This document shows, one piece after another, positions 9,552 through 15,564 of a stretch of DNA of 61,124 nucleotides. Source of the DNA: Anaerococcus nagyae. Lineage in GTDB: Bacteria > Bacillota > Clostridia > Tissierellales > Peptoniphilaceae. The notes under the pieces were generated by a model, which saw nothing but the letters and a program-made list of their open reading frames with translations, did no database searches and was not told the DNA's origin. Each line of letters opens with the position of its first letter. Within the stretch, counting starts at the first letter, position 1. Location of the stretch: positions 1 to 61,124 of the forward strand of contig NZ_JAGGLS010000011.1 of NCBI RefSeq assembly GCF_017874535.1, written 5' to 3'. The position numbers and the translations under genes are program-made.

Positions 9552-9579
9552 TTATACTTTTGTAATCTTGGGGTATAAT
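9552..9579 (+). promoter_or_regulatory. Possible promoter of tpx
   Basis: -10 TATAAT (9574-9579) with a weak -35 TTATAC (9552-9557) and a 16-base spacer, directly after the stop of the preceding gene. Low confidence for the -35. Confidence 0.4.
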
Positions 9580-9615
9580 TTAAAAGTAAATAGGATTAAA
9601 TTAGGAGGAATTATT

Positions 9616-10113
9616 ATGGATATAACATTTGGGGGAAATAAAGTAAACTTATTAGGTCAAGAAATTAAGGTTGGAGATAGTGCTCCTGCATTTAAAGCAA
9701 CAAAAAACGATTTAAGCGAATGGAGCAGTACTGATTACGAAGGTAAAATCGTAATTTATTCTGTAGCACCTTCTCTTGATACTAGCGTATGTGCTTTACA
9801 AGCAAAAAGATTTAACAAAGAAGCAGCTAGTCTTGATGGAGTAAATGTAGTTACAATTACAGAAGACCTACCTTTTGCTCAAGCTAGATTCTGTTCTAAC
9901 GAAGACATTGAAAATACAATTATGATTTCAGATTATCAAAATCGTGAGTTTGGTGAAAAATTTGGCTTCTTAATGGATGAAAATAAACTTTTAGCTCGAG
10001 GCGTTGTTGTAGTTGATAAAGATGGCAAAGTAGCTTATGTAGAATATGTTCCAGAAGTTACTAATGAAGTTGACTTTGATAAAGCTCTTGAAGAAGTTAA
10101 AAAATTAATCTAA
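9616..10113 (+). CDS. tpx: Thiol peroxidase (atypical 2-Cys peroxiredoxin)
   Basis: 165 residues. It reduces peroxides using thioredoxin. Both family cysteines are present: peroxidatic Cys in PSLDTSVCALQ and resolving Cys in DLPFAQARFC. The start at 9616 (MDITFGGN) has TAGGAGGAAT upstream; an upstream in-frame ATG at 9568 has none and would add 16 non-homologous residues. Located in the cytoplasm; one of the few visible oxidative-defence genes of this probable anaerobe. Confidence 0.93.
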   Translation: MDITFGGNKVNLLGQEIKVGDSAPAFKATKNDLSEWSSTDYEGKIVIYSVAPSLDTSVCALQAKRFNKEAASLDGVNVVTITEDLPFAQARFCSNEDIENTIMISDYQNREFGEKFGFLMDENKLLARGVVVVDKDGKVAYVEYVPEVTNEVDFDKALEEVKKLI

Positions 10114-10298: not shown

Positions 10299-13200
10299 TT
10301 AAATATCTTGCCAGTTCTTTTTACCACTAGCTATATTCTTTATATATTTACCTACTCCATTATTTTTTATCATATCCCTATCTATGAAATACACGCCTGC
10401 TGCAGATGCTAGCATCTTGATATGGGAAGTATCGTCATTTGAGTTTGAAGATATGAGCACTGGTTTAGCATCCATACCAAATTGTTTAGTATGATTATTA
10501 ATTTCATATAGATCTTCATTATTTATATTATTTTCAACGGTAGATATAATTATTGTAGAAAAACCTTTAGTACATACTATATCTAAGATATTCTCTATAG
10601 CTTTACTATCCTCTCTATAATCATCATAAGCCTTCCATCTAAGATTAACTCTTATCTTGATTTCATCAAAGAAATCAGCATATTTAATAAGTTCAAAATA
10701 TGTATACACTCTAAGCATACTTCCTTTATCTTCATATCCGTTAAAAAATTCCCTAAATGAAAGATCACCATATTCATAACGGAATAAAACAAAATCATCA
10801 CCACTTTTTACATAAGGGGAATTTTCGATTTTGTTAAAAATTCTAATAGAATTTCCATCATCTGATTTATCAATATCCAGCATAATTTTATTAACTCTAT
10901 TAGCAAATTCTTTAGGGTTGTCAACTTTATACTTATATTGAAAATTTAACTTATTCGAAACTATTAAATAACTGTATTCATAGTTTTTTTCTAATAACTG
11001 TGTCTTTACTAGATCAAAACCCTCATTATATTCCCACATATTTTTTGATATAAATTCGCCAAGGTTTCTTGATAAATCATCATTATAAGAATGAAGCCTT
11101 AGATAACCAGGATTTGCCGGAAATTCATATTCTATTAGTATATCTTCCTTAATCAGTTCATCTAGAAGATGCTTTAAACTCTTATATTTCTTAGTGTCAT
11201 ATCTTCTGAATTTAAAATCACCAACTTCTAATAAGCTATGCTCATCTTCTCTTTCAAACTTATCAAGATTTAGAATGCATAGATTACGGCTATATTTTAT
11301 AGCTTCTACAAAATTTTGCCAATCATTTGAATCCATATTTATATATGCTTGCCATAACCTAGGATAATGTTTTATTAATCTTGTTATATTAGATATGCTT
11401 GGACTCTCGTATACCATAGCATTATTTAAAAAGAAAGTTTCTTCCACAGTAAGGGAACTTTTCATACTATAGAATTCTAAAGCTTTATAGTTTCCGAACC
11501 AATTATTTGATCCAATATATTCTATATAATCTATATCCATAAGCTCAGGTCTTTTACCATCTAGATGACTATTTAAGGTCAGGTCTACAACTGAATTTTC
11601 CTTATTATAATATTGGAGTTGATCATAAGTAATGACTTCAATATATATATACTTTTGTAGTCTTTTATTTTTCAAAAAGCTTTCAATTCTATCTATTTTC
11701 TTACTATCTACAGGCTTATCACTTAAAAATATAAGTTTTTCTGGATAAAATTTGATAGTTGCTATGATATTAGCCCATAAATTTTCATCATCATCTATAA
11801 AAGGTTTATAAATAGTCTTAATTTTCTCAGATGATATCAAAGGAATAGAATCAATAATCATATAATCTATTAGTTTAATATCTAATTCTTTATTCCTCCT
11901 AATAATTAAATCTAGATCACTTTTTATTTGAATATAATCATTACTTAAAGTCTTTAAATCAGGATTAGCTTCATATAATATCTCTTCTATCTCATAAGTC
12001 AAAACATTTAATGAGTTATTAGCGTAAAGCTCATTTTCTATAATTTTATAAGATAAATTAACAAACTTAATCCATAATGGTCTTAATCTTCTTAAGAAAT
12101 CATTATCATCCCGTAGTGTGTTATTTAAAACATTTAATAATCTAAATTTTACCTGATCTTCTTTATAAATAGTTTTTTCTACAATTAATTTGTCTATATG
12201 ATTTGAAACTTCAGTTAACTTATCAACATAGCCTTTTTTTCGCAGTCCAGCATTACTATTAGTTATTAAAGGATGAAACTTATTTTGATAGTCAGCATAA
12301 CCTTTTTGATCTACATAAGCATAGGAGTTAAGCTCAGCAGTAGTAGGAATTCTATATCCTTGAGATATCATAAATCTATTCCAAGAATGGTGTTCGCTAT
12401 CCGCTAATATATCTCTAATATTTATTTCATCAGTATTGTTTTTTGCTCGCAAAAGCATTTTATAGAAATTAAGTGGTGCTTGATCATCATCTTCTATTCC
12501 AGCCATAAATAGGTAATATTCCATAGATAAGGCCACTCTTAAAGAGGTCTTTAGGTTATAAAAGTTTTCTTCTAAAAATTCTTTCCATATATCATCATAA
12601 TCAACTCGCTCACCTTTATTTACAATTACGTGGAGTCTATAAATATCAAAAGCCTCTTCTAATAACTTATCATTAAATTTCCTATTTTTGAATGTAGAAG
12701 TTGAAGCTAAGTCAAAATTATAATAGGATATATTTTTTTCTTGTCTAATATCCACTCTATGATTATTTCTTGAATAATTAAGAATAACTCTTTTTTGATT
12801 ATCTAATCTAAACTCTTCATACAAGACATCACCCATTCTGCTATAATCATAACCCGTATCATCTAATATTAGAATATAAGATTCTTCTATTCTTTCTTTA
12901 TAAGATTTGAAGTTAATATAAGCGTACGGTTTATCAGTGATATCTGTATTTATATTATTATTTACAATCCTTCCATTTAGCTTTATTTCTGTACTTTGAG
13001 CTAATAATGGATTTTCATTAAGCATCTGCTTATAAAACTTTTTAGGATTTTTATCGTATAAATTAATATTAAGATCTACATCTTTTATTATTACAGTTGA
13101 GAATATAAAACTAAAAAATATTCTAGAAAGGTCATTGTTTCCCACAATTGCAACATCAATACTTTTTAAATCATCTTTCTCAATTATATAATTATAAAGT

Positions 13201-14309
13201 CTATTATAGTCTAAAAAATATACTGCGGATAATATATTAGAAAAGTCCTCATTATTTCTAAATCTTAAGTTGTTTTCTATCTTGATGAGTCTATTTTTAA
13301 ACTCTTCTACACTTATATATCTACGTATAGGTAAAGTTTCCTGTAATAATTCTATAATTTCCTCTACAGCATACTTATTTACTAAAATCTTATTTGACTT
13401 ATTGCTAAGCTCATCTCTTACATTTCTAGCAAGAAACTCCATATCCTCATTTTCTAAATTAGTAGGATATCTGCCCATTATTAATGTAAAGAATGTAGCT
13501 CCTAGCATATATGTATCTATTTCTTCAGTTATAAAAAATTCTTTTCTTTTGTCAATATTCGTAATGTATCTAATTTCAGGAGGAATAAAGGCTCTTTCAC
13601 TTGGCATAGAAAATTCATTTATATATTCAAGCTCATTGAGGTCAATAGCTGCATCAAAGTCAAATAATTTAACCTTGCTATTATTATAGTCATAGAGTAT
13701 ATTAGCAGGCTTTAAATCCATATAAATAATATCATTATTATGTAGGTGGATTAGTATATCTGCTGTTTGAATAAGAATATCTACAATCCTTGCCAAATCT
13801 AAATTATAATACTTATCCACACTAGTAGCAGAATCCACCTCATAAAGAGAATATAAAAATGAATTGTCTATCTCTACCCTATAAGGTCTTACTATCTTGC
13901 TATCAAAAAAGCTATCCATCTCCAAAATTCTAATATGCTTATTATAGGCATCAATAAATTTATCTCGATCTTTTTTTATTCTCTGTTCATCCTTGCTAGT
14001 AATTGCATCAAAATATAATTCCAGTTTGTTAATAGGATTTCTTTCTGCAACAATATTATCCTCATTGTAGTTTGGATAAAATTCTTTCATTATCATCTTT
14101 TTTATAGGCGGATATGTATCATCAACTGCTACCTCATATACCAAAGATGAACCTCCAAGTCCTATAAGTTTTTTAACCTCAACCTCATACTTAACTTCAC
14201 CCATCATACTAATGATATTGAATTTTTCTCCAACAAGTGAACTTCTTGTTGAATTAACTTTGTTATTTAATTGATCAATAAAATTTTCCTGTGAAGTAAA
14301 ATCTTTCAT
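10299..14309 (-). CDS. Multidomain Ser/Thr kinase protein with RyR-like and DUF1887-like regions
   Basis: 1336 residues, cytoplasmic, no membrane segment seen. Residues 40-345: Hanks-type kinase with Gly-rich loop GLGGSSLVYEV, Lys in IMKEFYP (about 75), catalytic YMDLKPANIL (Asp198, Lys200, Asn203), DFD (217-219) in place of DFG, PPE near 243 and Asp265. About 384-500: Rossmann-like segment starting VAIVGNNDLSR. About 636-690: RyR-like motif LADSEHHSWNR with later FHPLI. About 813-960: alternating alpha/beta region (LIFLSDKP, VVDLTLNS) that may be CARF-like. About 1195-1320: resembles the C-terminal PD-(D/E)XK domain of DUF1887 proteins (Card1/Can2), but the usual Glu and Lys appear replaced. 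Only the kinase call is firm. The gene stands alone with its own probable promoter. It may be a sensor or defence protein; the ligand and target are unknown. Confidence 0.7.
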   Translation of the reverse strand: MKDFTSQENFIDQLNNKVNSTRSSLVGEKFNIISMMGEVKYEVEVKKLIGLGGSSLVYEVAVDDTYPPIKKMIMKEFYPNYNEDNIVAERNPINKLELYFDAITSKDEQRIKKDRDKFIDAYNKHIRILEMDSFFDSKIVRPYRVEIDNSFLYSLYEVDSATSVDKYYNLDLARIVDILIQTADILIHLHNNDIIYMDLKPANILYDYNNSKVKLFDFDAAIDLNELEYINEFSMPSERAFIPPEIRYITNIDKRKEFFITEEIDTYMLGATFFTLIMGRYPTNLENEDMEFLARNVRDELSNKSNKILVNKYAVEEIIELLQETLPIRRYISVEEFKNRLIKIENNLRFRNNEDFSNILSAVYFLDYNRLYNYIIEKDDLKSIDVAIVGNNDLSRIFFSFIFSTVIIKDVDLNINLYDKNPKKFYKQMLNENPLLAQSTEIKLNGRIVNNNINTDITDKPYAYINFKSYKERIEESYILILDDTGYDYSRMGDVLYEEFRLDNQKRVILNYSRNNHRVDIRQEKNISYYNFDLASTSTFKNRKFNDKLLEEAFDIYRLHVIVNKGERVDYDDIWKEFLEENFYNLKTSLRVALSMEYYLFMAGIEDDDQAPLNFYKMLLRAKNNTDEINIRDILADSEHHSWNRFMISQGYRIPTTAELNSYAYVDQKGYADYQNKFHPLITNSNAGLRKKGYVDKLTEVSNHIDKLIVEKTIYKEDQVKFRLLNVLNNTLRDDNDFLRRLRPLWIKFVNLSYKIIENELYANNSLNVLTYEIEEILYEANPDLKTLSNDYIQIKSDLDLIIRRNKELDIKLIDYMIIDSIPLISSEKIKTIYKPFIDDDENLWANIIATIKFYPEKLIFLSDKPVDSKKIDRIESFLKNKRLQKYIYIEVITYDQLQYYNKENSVVDLTLNSHLDGKRPELMDIDYIEYIGSNNWFGNYKALEFYSMKSSLTVEETFFLNNAMVYESPSISNITRLIKHYPRLWQAYINMDSNDWQNFVEAIKYSRNLCILNLDKFEREDEHSLLEVGDFKFRRYDTKKYKSLKHLLDELIKEDILIEYEFPANPGYLRLHSYNDDLSRNLGEFISKNMWEYNEGFDLVKTQLLEKNYEYSYLIVSNKLNFQYKYKVDNPKEFANRVNKIMLDIDKSDDGNSIRIFNKIENSPYVKSGDDFVLFRYEYGDLSFREFFNGYEDKGSMLRVYTYFELIKYADFFDEIKIRVNLRWKAYDDYREDSKAIENILDIVCTKGFSTIIISTVENNINNEDLYEINNHTKQFGMDAKPVLISSNSNDDTSHIKMLASAAGVYFIDRDMIKNNGVGKYIKNIASGKKNWQDI

Positions 14310-14398: not shown

Positions 14399-14514
14399 GC
14401 ACTTTTATATAGAAATGTTTTCCCGTTATAATTATTATACATCATTTTATACTTAAAATATAAGAATATTAAAGTTATATCAAATTTTATTACTGAATTA
14501 TTAGTGTATTCTGG

Positions 14515-14520
14515 TATAAT
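14515..14520 (+). promoter_or_regulatory. Extended -10 of the luciferase-like gene
   Basis: TGGTATAAT is an extended -10 (hexamer 14515-14520) with no good -35. It lies about 43 bases ahead of the chosen ATG. Confidence 0.4.
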
Positions 14521-14549
14521 CATTCTAATATTAAATGAATTATTCTAAT

Positions 14550-14557
14550 GGGGGGGG
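14550..14557 (+). repeat. G8 homopolymer acting as ribosome-binding site
   Basis: Eight consecutive G in an A/T-rich region lie 5 bases before the ATG at 14563 and are the only SD-like sequence there. Such tracts slip during replication, so their length could vary between cells and change SD spacing. Confidence 0.6.
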
Positions 14558-14562
14558 TAAAT

Positions 14563-15564
14563 ATGAAATTAGGGGTTCATGATTTAATGTTAAAACAAAA
14601 TGATAAAACAAATCAAGAATTCTTCGAAGATACTAAAAAATTAGTACATGAATTAGATAAACTTGGTTACGACAGATATTGGTTTGCAGAACACCACGGA
14701 TATAAAAGTTTACTAGCAGTTGCACCTGAGATAATATCTAGCTACTTTCTATCTATTACTAAACATATGAATATAGGTGCTGGTGGATGCATGATAATGC
14801 ACTATTCGCCACTTAAGGTGGCAGAAATATTTAAAACTATGGCAGAACTTGCTCCAGGCAGAATTGACATAGGTATTGGTCGTGCCCCAGGATGTGGAGT
14901 TCCAGAAACAAGAGCTTTAAATCATAAGTTCGAGGATAAATCTCCTGACTTATATGATGAAATTGAAGTTATACTTGATTACTTACAAGATGAGAAACCA
15001 AAAGATCCCATTTATAGATTTGTAAAGGCTGTACCAAGATATAACGAATCTTTAGTTAACCCACGGATGTTAGGGTCTACAGGAAAATCTGCACCTAAAG
15101 CTGCTGAGTGGGGATTACCATACTCTTTTGCTAAATTTTTTCTAGTTGAAACACCTGCAGAAGTATTTAAGCAATATAGGTCTGAATTTAAACCATCTAT
15201 ATATGCTGACAAGCCATATATTTCTATGTCCTACAAAATATTAATTAGTGATGATAGAGACGAACTCGAATACTTAGGAAAATCTTTTGAGTATTTCCAC
15301 ATTCAACAAAATAATGGTAAATTTAAAGGTATAATTGATCCTGAAGAGCTTAAAGATTATCATTTTAGCCTAAATGAACAAGCAATACTAAAAAAAGGCT
15401 ATGATAATAATTTCTTAATCAAAGGATCAAAGCAAGAAGTAGCTGATATTCTAGAAAAAGAAATAGAAGAATTTTATATAGACGAAATACTTTGCTTTGC
15501 TCCTATTTTCGGCATTGATAATAGAATTAGCACCTATAAGTCCTTAAAAGAAATATTTCATTAA
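14563..15564 (+). CDS. LLM class (luciferase-like) flavin-dependent oxidoreductase
   Basis: 333 residues from the ATG at 14563; an ATG at 14548 lies before the G-tract and is not favoured. It is a TIM-barrel family using FMN or F420. Seen: LGYDRYWFAEHH near residue 45, IGAGGCMIMHYSPLKVAE near 73 and ELAPGRIDIGIGRAPG near 97, all typical of the bacterial-luciferase-like monooxygenase subfamily with a short insert region. Substrate unknown. A terminator follows directly. Confidence 0.85.
   Translation: MKLGVHDLMLKQNDKTNQEFFEDTKKLVHELDKLGYDRYWFAEHHGYKSLLAVAPEIISSYFLSITKHMNIGAGGCMIMHYSPLKVAEIFKTMAELAPGRIDIGIGRAPGCGVPETRALNHKFEDKSPDLYDEIEVILDYLQDEKPKDPIYRFVKAVPRYNESLVNPRMLGSTGKSAPKAAEWGLPYSFAKFFLVETPAEVFKQYRSEFKPSIYADKPYISMSYKILISDDRDELEYLGKSFEYFHIQQNNGKFKGIIDPEELKDYHFSLNEQAILKKGYDNNFLIKGSKQEVADILEKEIEEFYIDEILCFAPIFGIDNRISTYKSLKEIFH

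What the first reader, a model, noticed from the sequence alone, without database searches (positions are those of the whole stretch)
10299..14309. 1336-residue solo protein joining a Ser/Thr kinase to RyR-like and DUF1887-like regions
Seen: a complete-looking Hanks kinase (YMDLKPAN, DFD, PPE, Asp265) followed by about 990 residues in which a Rossmann-like segment (VAIVGNND), an EHHSW RyR-like segment and alpha/beta regions follow in order. Known: RyR domains occur in bacterial signalling and conflict proteins; DUF1887 proteins (Card1/Can2) are CARF-controlled nucleases of type III CRISPR systems. Inference: this may be a kinase-type sensor of nucleotide-like ligands in a stress or anti-phage role. 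I know of no described system with this exact domain order. Domain calls other than the kinase are by eye.
Basis: partly seen in the sequence, partly recalled or inferred. Interest (0 to 1): 0.85.

Follow-up and report, generated by a model that had tools for sequence, protein, structure and literature searches.

The report
Sensor kinase with ADP-ribose-type receptor domain
A large bacterial protein joins a working-looking protein kinase to a chain of nucleotide-sensing domains related to those of antiviral systems, ending in a nuclease whose active site has decayed; it looks like a switch that turns a small nucleotide signal into protein phosphorylation.

Summary
The last two match Card1-like proteins at HHalign 99.9%; Rossmann-RyR matches TrkA-type RyR proteins at 99.9%; the RyR call is the weakest by sequence.

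In this protein the nuclease residues (NExD...SCK in relatives, NILD...STV here), the CARF DxTGG loop and the Rossmann GxGxxG loop are degraded. Kinase residues are kept, and so are the equivalents of four residues by which phage RyDEP holds cyclic ADP-ribose. The dead nuclease domain is as conserved as the kinase.

Eleven copies occur in 8 of 31 Anaerococcus genomes; four distant same-class relatives exist (one cut by its contig). Two keep an ECK nuclease, three adjoin a PP2C gene, three lie among TIR genes.

Best reading: an adenine-nucleotide or ADP-ribose-gated kinase with a pseudonuclease scaffold, derived from a TIR-associated conflict system. The Anaerococcus genomes lack Cas10. Ligand, substrate and phage role are untested; both AlphaFold models failed. 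Ten library searches showed me no description of it.

The parts
10299..14309 (-). whole gene, 1336 aa kinase-Rossmann-RyR-CARF-like-pseudonuclease protein
   Evidence: open frame without stops; orthologues in six other Anaerococcus genomes, five at the same locus
13260..14189 (-). Hanks-type Ser/Thr kinase domain, residues about 41-350; K75, D198, N203, D217, PPE, D265 present
   Evidence: Pfam PF00069 E 1e-19; motif positions
12660..13172 (-). Rossmann (TrkA-N/RCK-like) segment, residues about 380-550; GxGxxG loop degraded to GNNDLS
   Evidence: HHalign of Rossmann+RyR slice with 13 TrkA-RyR proteins 99.9%; loop comparison
12165..12632 (-). RyR (R12-like) domain, residues about 560-715
   Evidence: HHalign 99.1% to TrkA-RyR proteins, which match standalone RyR proteins at 95.6%; direct match 32%; fold model failed
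12381..12392 (-). H640 and W643 (HxxW), equivalents of RyDEP H75 and W78
   Evidence: alignment A3: H in 13 of 13, W in 12 of 13; RyDEP residues from PMC13232231
12273..12275 (-). H679, equivalent of RyDEP phosphate-binding H100
   Evidence: H in 12 of 13; Thr at this place in five of five standalone RyR proteins
12222..12224 (-). D696, equivalent of RyDEP D117, same 17-residue offset from the histidine
   Evidence: D in 13 of 13; pattern HxxW...H-x16-D in 25 of 5000 shuffles of the protein
11475..11939 (-). CARF-like segment, residues about 791-945; DxTGG loop degraded to DLTLNSH (909-915)
   Evidence: HHalign 96-97% to the CARF part of Card1-like proteins, 86% with Anaerococcus rows alone
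10770..11474 (-). variable region, residues about 946-1180, between CARF-like and nuclease-like domains
   Evidence: 57-60% identity with three orthologues
10302..10769 (-). Card1/Can2-type PD-(D/E)xK domain, residues about 1181-1336, active site lost (N1240-I-L-D1243 ... S-T-V)
   Evidence: PADLOC CARF_PDDEXK E 2.9e-6; HHalign 99.7-99.8%; motif state; 78-80% identity with three orthologues

Best explanation
A ligand-gated sensor kinase. The RyR domain, helped by the Rossmann segment, binds an ADP-ribose-type or other adenine nucleotide. The CARF-like and Card1-like parts, which have lost their loop and catalytic residues, serve as a dimerisation/allosteric scaffold (a pseudonuclease). Ligand binding switches the N-terminal Hanks kinase, whose phosphorylation output replaces the nuclease output of related proteins. 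Its natural partners are probably those encoded with the paralogues: protein b (about 560 aa), protein a (about 177 aa) and a DUF4062-STAND-TPR ATPase. Shown here: domain homologies, residue states, operon contexts, purifying selection. Inferred: ligand class, allosteric switching, partners, and a stress/conflict role.
For: Kinase residues intact. Equivalents of all four RyDEP ligand residues kept; H640 and D696 in 13 of 13 family members. Distant relatives adjoin a PP2C gene in 3 of 4 (L082, L083, L143), as expected for an active kinase. Nuclease E and K lost in 9 of 9 Anaerococcus rows of A3 outside G028 against NExD...SCK in 27 of 30 Card1-like ORFs, yet that domain is 78-80% identical between orthologues, much like the kinase at 76-82%. 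In G027 the operon keeps a, b, a stand-alone kinase and the STAND protein without a sensor half (L034), so the kinase can stand as a separate module.
Against: No ligand, kinase assay or phenotype. RyR homology rests on a profile chain; direct profile match only 32% and no Pfam hit. Both AlphaFold models were unusable (pLDDT 47 and 48). One orthologue (L040) has R for W643 and another (L042) N for H679; the exact HxxW plus H-x16-D pattern shows in only 6 of 13 TrkA-RyR proteins. The solo copy has no partner beside it. The family profile found no solved structure. The same-genome paralogue, which also splits at the kinase/sensor boundary, does so by one in-frame stop, which may be a mutation rather than a two-gene design.
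Confidence: 0.45

Rival explanations
1. Redox/NAD-state sensor: a domesticated housekeeping kinase that reads NAD(P)(H) or ADP-ribose released in oxidative stress, co-located with peroxide genes.
For: Window copy lies between a thiol peroxidase gene and a divergent LLM-class oxidoreductase gene (names from reading the translations); the a-b operon or its remains is divergent from, or close to, genes read as ahpC-ahpF in seven of seven genomes looked at (L031-L037). PerR-like sequence precedes ahpC and the LLM gene. Distribution follows RpoC similarity.
Against: Rossmann dinucleotide loop is degraded. The PerR-like pattern is not enriched over its reversed control at 2 mismatches, 42 against 70. 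Distant relatives show TIR, PP2C and, in G371, conjugation neighbours.
Confidence: 0.2
2. Anti-phage effector kinase of the PD-T4-6/Stk2 type: infection activates the kinase, which phosphorylates host proteins and aborts growth.
For: Kinase matches PADLOC PD-T4-6, mad6, MkoA and PglW models (best E 8e-18); the G371 locus carries a TIR-kinase fusion and a conjugation gene, and three distant loci carry TIR genes.
Against: The PADLOC kinase hits fall on the kinase domain (the MkoA hit runs on to residue 542) and are in my judgement generic to the Hanks fold. The window genome has no TIR_2 match and the locus is not an island. No relative in viral contigs, phage records or plasmids.
Confidence: 0.2
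3. Active nucleic-acid-cutting Card1-type effector regulated by the kinase.
For: Two distant relatives (L082, L083) keep NEFD...ECK; domain strongly conserved.
Against: E and K lost in the window protein and in 9 of 9 Anaerococcus rows apart from G028; CARF loop lost. No Cas10 palm match over cut-off in 12 genomes carrying the family; G171 and G916 have matches below it.
Confidence: 0.05

Closest known systems
Card1/Can2 (CARF-PD-D/ExK effectors of type III CRISPR)
   Same: CARF-like plus PD-(D/E)xK order, profile match 99.9%
   Different: active-site E and K and CARF glycine loop lost, fused behind kinase-Rossmann-RyR, no Cas10 match in the window genome
RyDEP and the RyR/R12 domain family (PF02026)
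   Same: HxxW, His and Asp contact residues and the H-x16-D spacing
   Different: below Pfam detection; one module of a large kinase; about 14 more residues between the Trp and the second His (arithmetic)
TrkA-N-RyR proteins with a hydrophobic N-terminus (L084, L085, L142 etc.)
   Same: Rossmann + RyR module, HHalign 99.9%
   Different: 13 of 13 have a hydrophobic N-terminal stretch (peak hydropathy 1.8-2.8); the one scanned with Pfam, L084, shows no kinase or nuclease
Kinase-AAA-CARF-wHTH family noted by Makarova et al. 2014 (PMC4012209, passages read)
   Same: protein kinase upstream of a CARF domain in one chain, proposed kinase signalling
   Different: Zn ribbon and AAA ATPase, wHTH end; RyR, TrkA and DUF1887 are not mentioned in that paper (term counts 0)
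Thoeris (TIR enzyme plus ADP-ribose-type signal receptor)
   Same: TIR genes near three distant relatives; predicted ADP-ribose-type receptor domain
   Different: no TIR_2 gene in the window genome; receptor output would be a kinase

Membership tests
Hanks-type Ser/Thr kinase | Pfam kinase match with VAIK Lys, catalytic Asp and Asn, DFG Asp | tested here: met
   PF00069 E 1e-19 above cut-off; K75, D198, N203, D217; HRD is YMD and DFG is DFD
Card1/Can2 (DUF1887) | homologous CARF and PD-(D/E)xK domains | tested here: met
   PADLOC E 2.9e-6; HHalign 99.9% overall, 96-97% CARF, 99.7-99.8% nuclease; Pfam PF09002 sub-threshold in four relatives, no hit in the window protein
Card1/Can2 (DUF1887) | intact PD-(D/E)xK catalytic residues | tested here: not met
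   NILD...ISTV against NExD...SCK in 27 of 30 relatives
Card1/Can2 (DUF1887) | cOA control: Cas10 in the genome, conserved CARF DxTGG loop | tested here: not met
   own genome no PF22335 match, 0 of 12 genomes over cut-off, 2 of 12 (G171, G916) below it; DLTLNSH, DxTGG in 19 of 30 Card1-like ORFs
RyR/R12 domain (PF02026) | Pfam RyR match | tested here: not met
   no hit at E 1, none in the genome (control genomes silent)
RyR/R12 domain (PF02026) | homology by profile chain and ligand-contact residues H, W, H, D | tested here: met
   99.1% then 95.6%, direct 32%; residues
RyR/R12 domain (PF02026) | R12 fold | tested here: inconclusive
   AlphaFold pLDDT 47.8
RCK/TrkA-N NAD-binding Rossmann | GxGxxG dinucleotide loop | tested here: not met
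   GNNDLS in the window protein; GCGRLG and GCGKIG in TrkA-RyR proteins L084 and L085
Thoeris-like TIR signalling system | TIR enzyme linked to the receptor gene | tested here: inconclusive
   11 of 12 TIR_2 hits of G171, G292, G371 within 20 kb of the gene; own genome 0; in 3 of 8 Anaerococcus present but far away
Thoeris-like TIR signalling system | receptor binds a cyclic ADP-ribose isomer | not testable with these tools
   needs binding assay

The most novel reading that the evidence does not exclude
A kinase branch of TIR/ADP-ribose immunity: a TIR-type enzyme (or, in Anaerococcus, perhaps the DUF4062-STAND partner) makes an NAD-derived nucleotide that the RyR domain reads, and the output is protein phosphorylation by the fused kinase, opposed by a PP2C phosphatase, with the CARF-nuclease half kept active in some lineages and turned into a pseudonuclease in Anaerococcus. 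It would be the first bacterial RyR-type nucleotide receptor wired to a kinase.
Probability: 0.22. Interest if true: 0.85.

Novelty: new variant of a known kind. Interest (0 to 1): 0.62.

Why it matters
If right, it gives bacterial RyR domains a signalling output (phosphorylation) and adds a kinase to the known outputs of nucleotide second-messenger defence. It would also be a clear case of a Card1-type nuclease turned into a conserved pseudonuclease. The contact residues named here and the paired intact-site and dead-site versions make the ligand and the output directly testable.

Tried and rejected
Structure: two AlphaFold jobs, residues 353-1336 and 545-735, seven sequences each, gave pLDDT 47 and 48; no fold search was run on them. 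Profile search of solved structures: no match; phmmer with the whole protein gave 408 matches, of which the 60 shown fall on the kinase.

Carriers: no relative in viral contigs, plasmids or phage records.

DUF4062 as a TIR-like domain (recalled) was tested against eight TIR segments and not supported, 0.3%; the Viruses 2022 NAD-ADPr review has no DUF4062 or RyR mention (term counts 0). Protein b has no relative among eight neighbours of distant family members and no Pfam hit.

PerR link: 6 sites at one mismatch or fewer in the genome, one ahead of the LLM gene, but the motif was taken from ahpC upstream regions and the reversed control is not lower at two mismatches. Kept only as a lead.

Co-occurrence of protein b with the window-type gene is 7 of 7, but RpoC identity (92% or more) groups these genomes with G012 and G017, which lack the gene and have only a fragment of b (G012) or none, so it is mostly shared ancestry. 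No tree was built.

One search translated the wrong strand and was ignored. Of 39 ORFs extracted near matches, 30 of 355-520 aa made the Card1 profile; three of these (L090, L102, L135) lack the motif and may be wrong frames, and dropping them raised the scores.
Full report
WHAT IS THERE. Window 10299-14309, minus strand, encodes one 1336-aa protein. The window lies in an Anaerococcus genome: the named relatives fetched are A. provencensis, A. octavius and two unnamed Anaerococcus. The gene is flanked by tpx (9568-10113, +, convergent) and an LLM-class oxidoreductase gene (14548-15564, +, divergent), with fusA-rpsG-rpsL on one side and rpoC-rpoB on the other (these names come from reading the translations). 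In the genus there are 11 copies in 8 of 31 genomes: a window-type gene in seven genomes (G000, G014, G020, G024, G025, G027, G029), a paralogue besides in three of these (G000, G024, G025), and a divergent copy in G028. Six of the seven window-type genes lie near rpoC with tpx and LLM genes around; G024's lies far from rpoC, beside LLM genes and between protein b and a STAND protein. The tally of 41 of 61 is mostly kinase-only matches.

DOMAINS. Kinase: Pfam E 1e-19; K75, D198, N203 and D217 present. Rossmann + RyR: the family slice 353-720 matches 13 TrkA-RyR proteins at HHalign 99.9% (E 4e-32); those match five standalone RyR proteins at 95.6%; one of the five, L082:10362-10643, has a Pfam RyR E of 2e-37. 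Directly, the RyR slice matches the standalone proteins at only 32%, in the right register. CARF + nuclease: slice 780-1336 matches Card1-like proteins at 99.9% (E 9e-32 with 30 ORFs; 1.5e-34 with the 27 that carry the motif); the CARF slice alone 96-97%, the nuclease slice alone 99.7-99.8%. With only the nine Anaerococcus rows the values are 99.3, 86 and 99.0%. Most of those proteins were found through the nuclease end, so the CARF match is largely independent of how they were chosen. The nuclease call also rests on PADLOC (window protein E 2.9e-6, L038 8e-13) and on sub-threshold Pfam Card1_endonuc hits in four relatives. Four cross-domain controls scored 0.2-4.2%.

WHICH SITES ARE ALIVE. 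In alignment A3 (13 members) the positions matching RyDEP H75, W78, H100 and D117 are H 13/13, W 12/13, H 12/13, D 13/13. The offset between the second His and the Asp is 17, as in RyDEP. HxxW followed by H-x16-D appears in 6 of 13 TrkA-RyR proteins; five of five standalone RyR proteins have HxxW and T-x16-D. The pattern arose in 25 of 5000 shuffles of the window protein. RyDEP facts are from the preprint PMC13232231 (outline, first part and sections 4-5 read; [quoted passage not shown] In contrast the Rossmann loop is GNNDLS, the CARF loop DLTLNSH (DxTGG in 19 of 30 Card1-like ORFs), and the nuclease motif NILD...ISTV (NExD...SCK in 27 of 30). Among A3 rows the E and K are lost in nine of nine Anaerococcus rows other than G028; G028 and L081 have NE(I/L)D...SCK, L082 and L083 NEFD...ECK.

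SELECTION. Between G029 and G027 whole-gene dN/dS is 0.069, and the nuclease-like domain 0.048. Between the window protein and three orthologues the nuclease-like domain is 78-80% identical, the kinase 76-82%, the CARF-like segment 68-74%, the Rossmann segment 65-66% and RyR 51-58%. So the dead nuclease seems kept for another purpose, and the RyR domain diverges fastest while mostly keeping its contact residues. The RyR stretch has low dS in G029-G027 and G029-G020 (0.15-0.16 against 0.35-0.44 overall), so its dN/dS there (0.17-0.31) may be distorted by recombination.

CONTEXT. In the own genome the paralogue at C6 is cut by one in-frame stop at the kinase/sensor boundary into 344-aa and 992-aa ORFs, inside an operon with a (190 aa), b (561 aa) and a 1285-aa STAND-type protein; its L033 counterpart has DUF4062, NPHP3-type NTPase and TPR matches. 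The operon or its remains lie beside genes read as ahpC-ahpF in seven of seven genomes (L031-L037). G027 keeps a, b, kinase and STAND without a sensor half; in G029, G020 and G014 the operon is decayed while the solo gene is intact.

DISTANT RELATIVES. Profile searches matched 35 of 391 class genomes, 5 of 398 phylum genomes, 19 of 200 genomes of G171's family and 28 of 197 of G371's order (draws overlap and include the own genome or the centre). Most matches are separate Card1-like or TrkA-RyR proteins. Full-architecture relatives outside the genus were G371, G292 and G171, plus G916, whose 3.5-kb contig cuts the gene before the nuclease. PP2C genes lie just upstream in G292, G171 and G916. 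In G371 the neighbours include protein a (HHalign 99.9% to the Anaerococcus a), a TIR-kinase fusion, ClpP and a conjugation coupling protein. TIR_2: G171 3 of 3, G292 4 of 4 and G371 4 of 5 hits lie within 20 kb of the gene, 11 of 12 together; TIR genes cluster, so this is three loci, not eleven independent events. For G916 the contig is too short to tell. Among the eight Anaerococcus with the gene, TIR_2 is absent in five and far from it in three. In G1131 a Card1-like gene, a standalone RyR gene and two TrkA-RyR genes stand within about 8 kb, as if the parts of the fusion. Cas10 palm: none in the eight Anaerococcus; below-cut-off matches in G171 and G916.

MECHANISM. The parts still chemically credible in the window protein are the kinase and the RyR pocket. 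The simplest mechanism is therefore a nucleotide-gated kinase: RyR binds an ADP-ribose-like or adenine ligand, the CARF/pseudonuclease half transmits or scaffolds (Card1/Can2 form homodimers; PMC9704534, passages read), and phosphorylation is the output. The PP2C neighbours of relatives fit a reversible switch. Ligand identity, gating and target are inference.

NOVELTY. Ten library searches showed no paper that I recognised as describing this architecture. Several returned long capped lists of which I saw 8-20 rows, judged from titles and abstract openings. The nearest in print is the kinase-AAA-CARF-wHTH family (PMC4012209, passages). Passages of PMC7016017 and PMC9503650 did not help. Burroughs et al. 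2015, which I recall as surveying RyR and TIR networks, is not held, so a prior mention there cannot be excluded.

Noticed in passing
L031-L037 (Anaerococcus operon beside genes read as ahpCF): Operon a-b-kinase-[sensor]-STAND(DUF4062/NPHP3/TPR)-lipoprotein, whole in some genomes and decayed in sister genomes; protein b (about 560 aa) has no Pfam match.
   Followed up: partly
window 14514-14528 and G000:C6:41743-41757: PerR-like TTAGAATGATTATAA sequences (one mismatch each) ahead of the LLM gene and of ahpC, each near a copy of this gene family; weak statistics.
   Followed up: partly
L081:6180-7748: TIR-Ser/Thr kinase fusion gene (Pfam TIR_2 and Pkinase) next to the G371 family member, in a locus that also has T4SS coupling and ClpP genes.
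   Followed up: no
L142:5171-13221, L145:7982-14745, L147:4567-12431: Standalone RyR genes of about 95-110 aa near TrkA-RyR proteins with hydrophobic N-termini, with a TIR-like gene (L147, by reading) or a Card1-like gene (L142, Pfam) nearby.
   Followed up: partly
residues 560-715, G029 against G027 and G020 orthologues: RyR stretch has much lower synonymous divergence than the rest of the gene, suggesting local recombination.
   Followed up: no
Card1-like ORFs (30): Active-site variant S-C-K rather than E-x-K dominates (27 of 30); none was checked for a linked Cas10.
   Followed up: no
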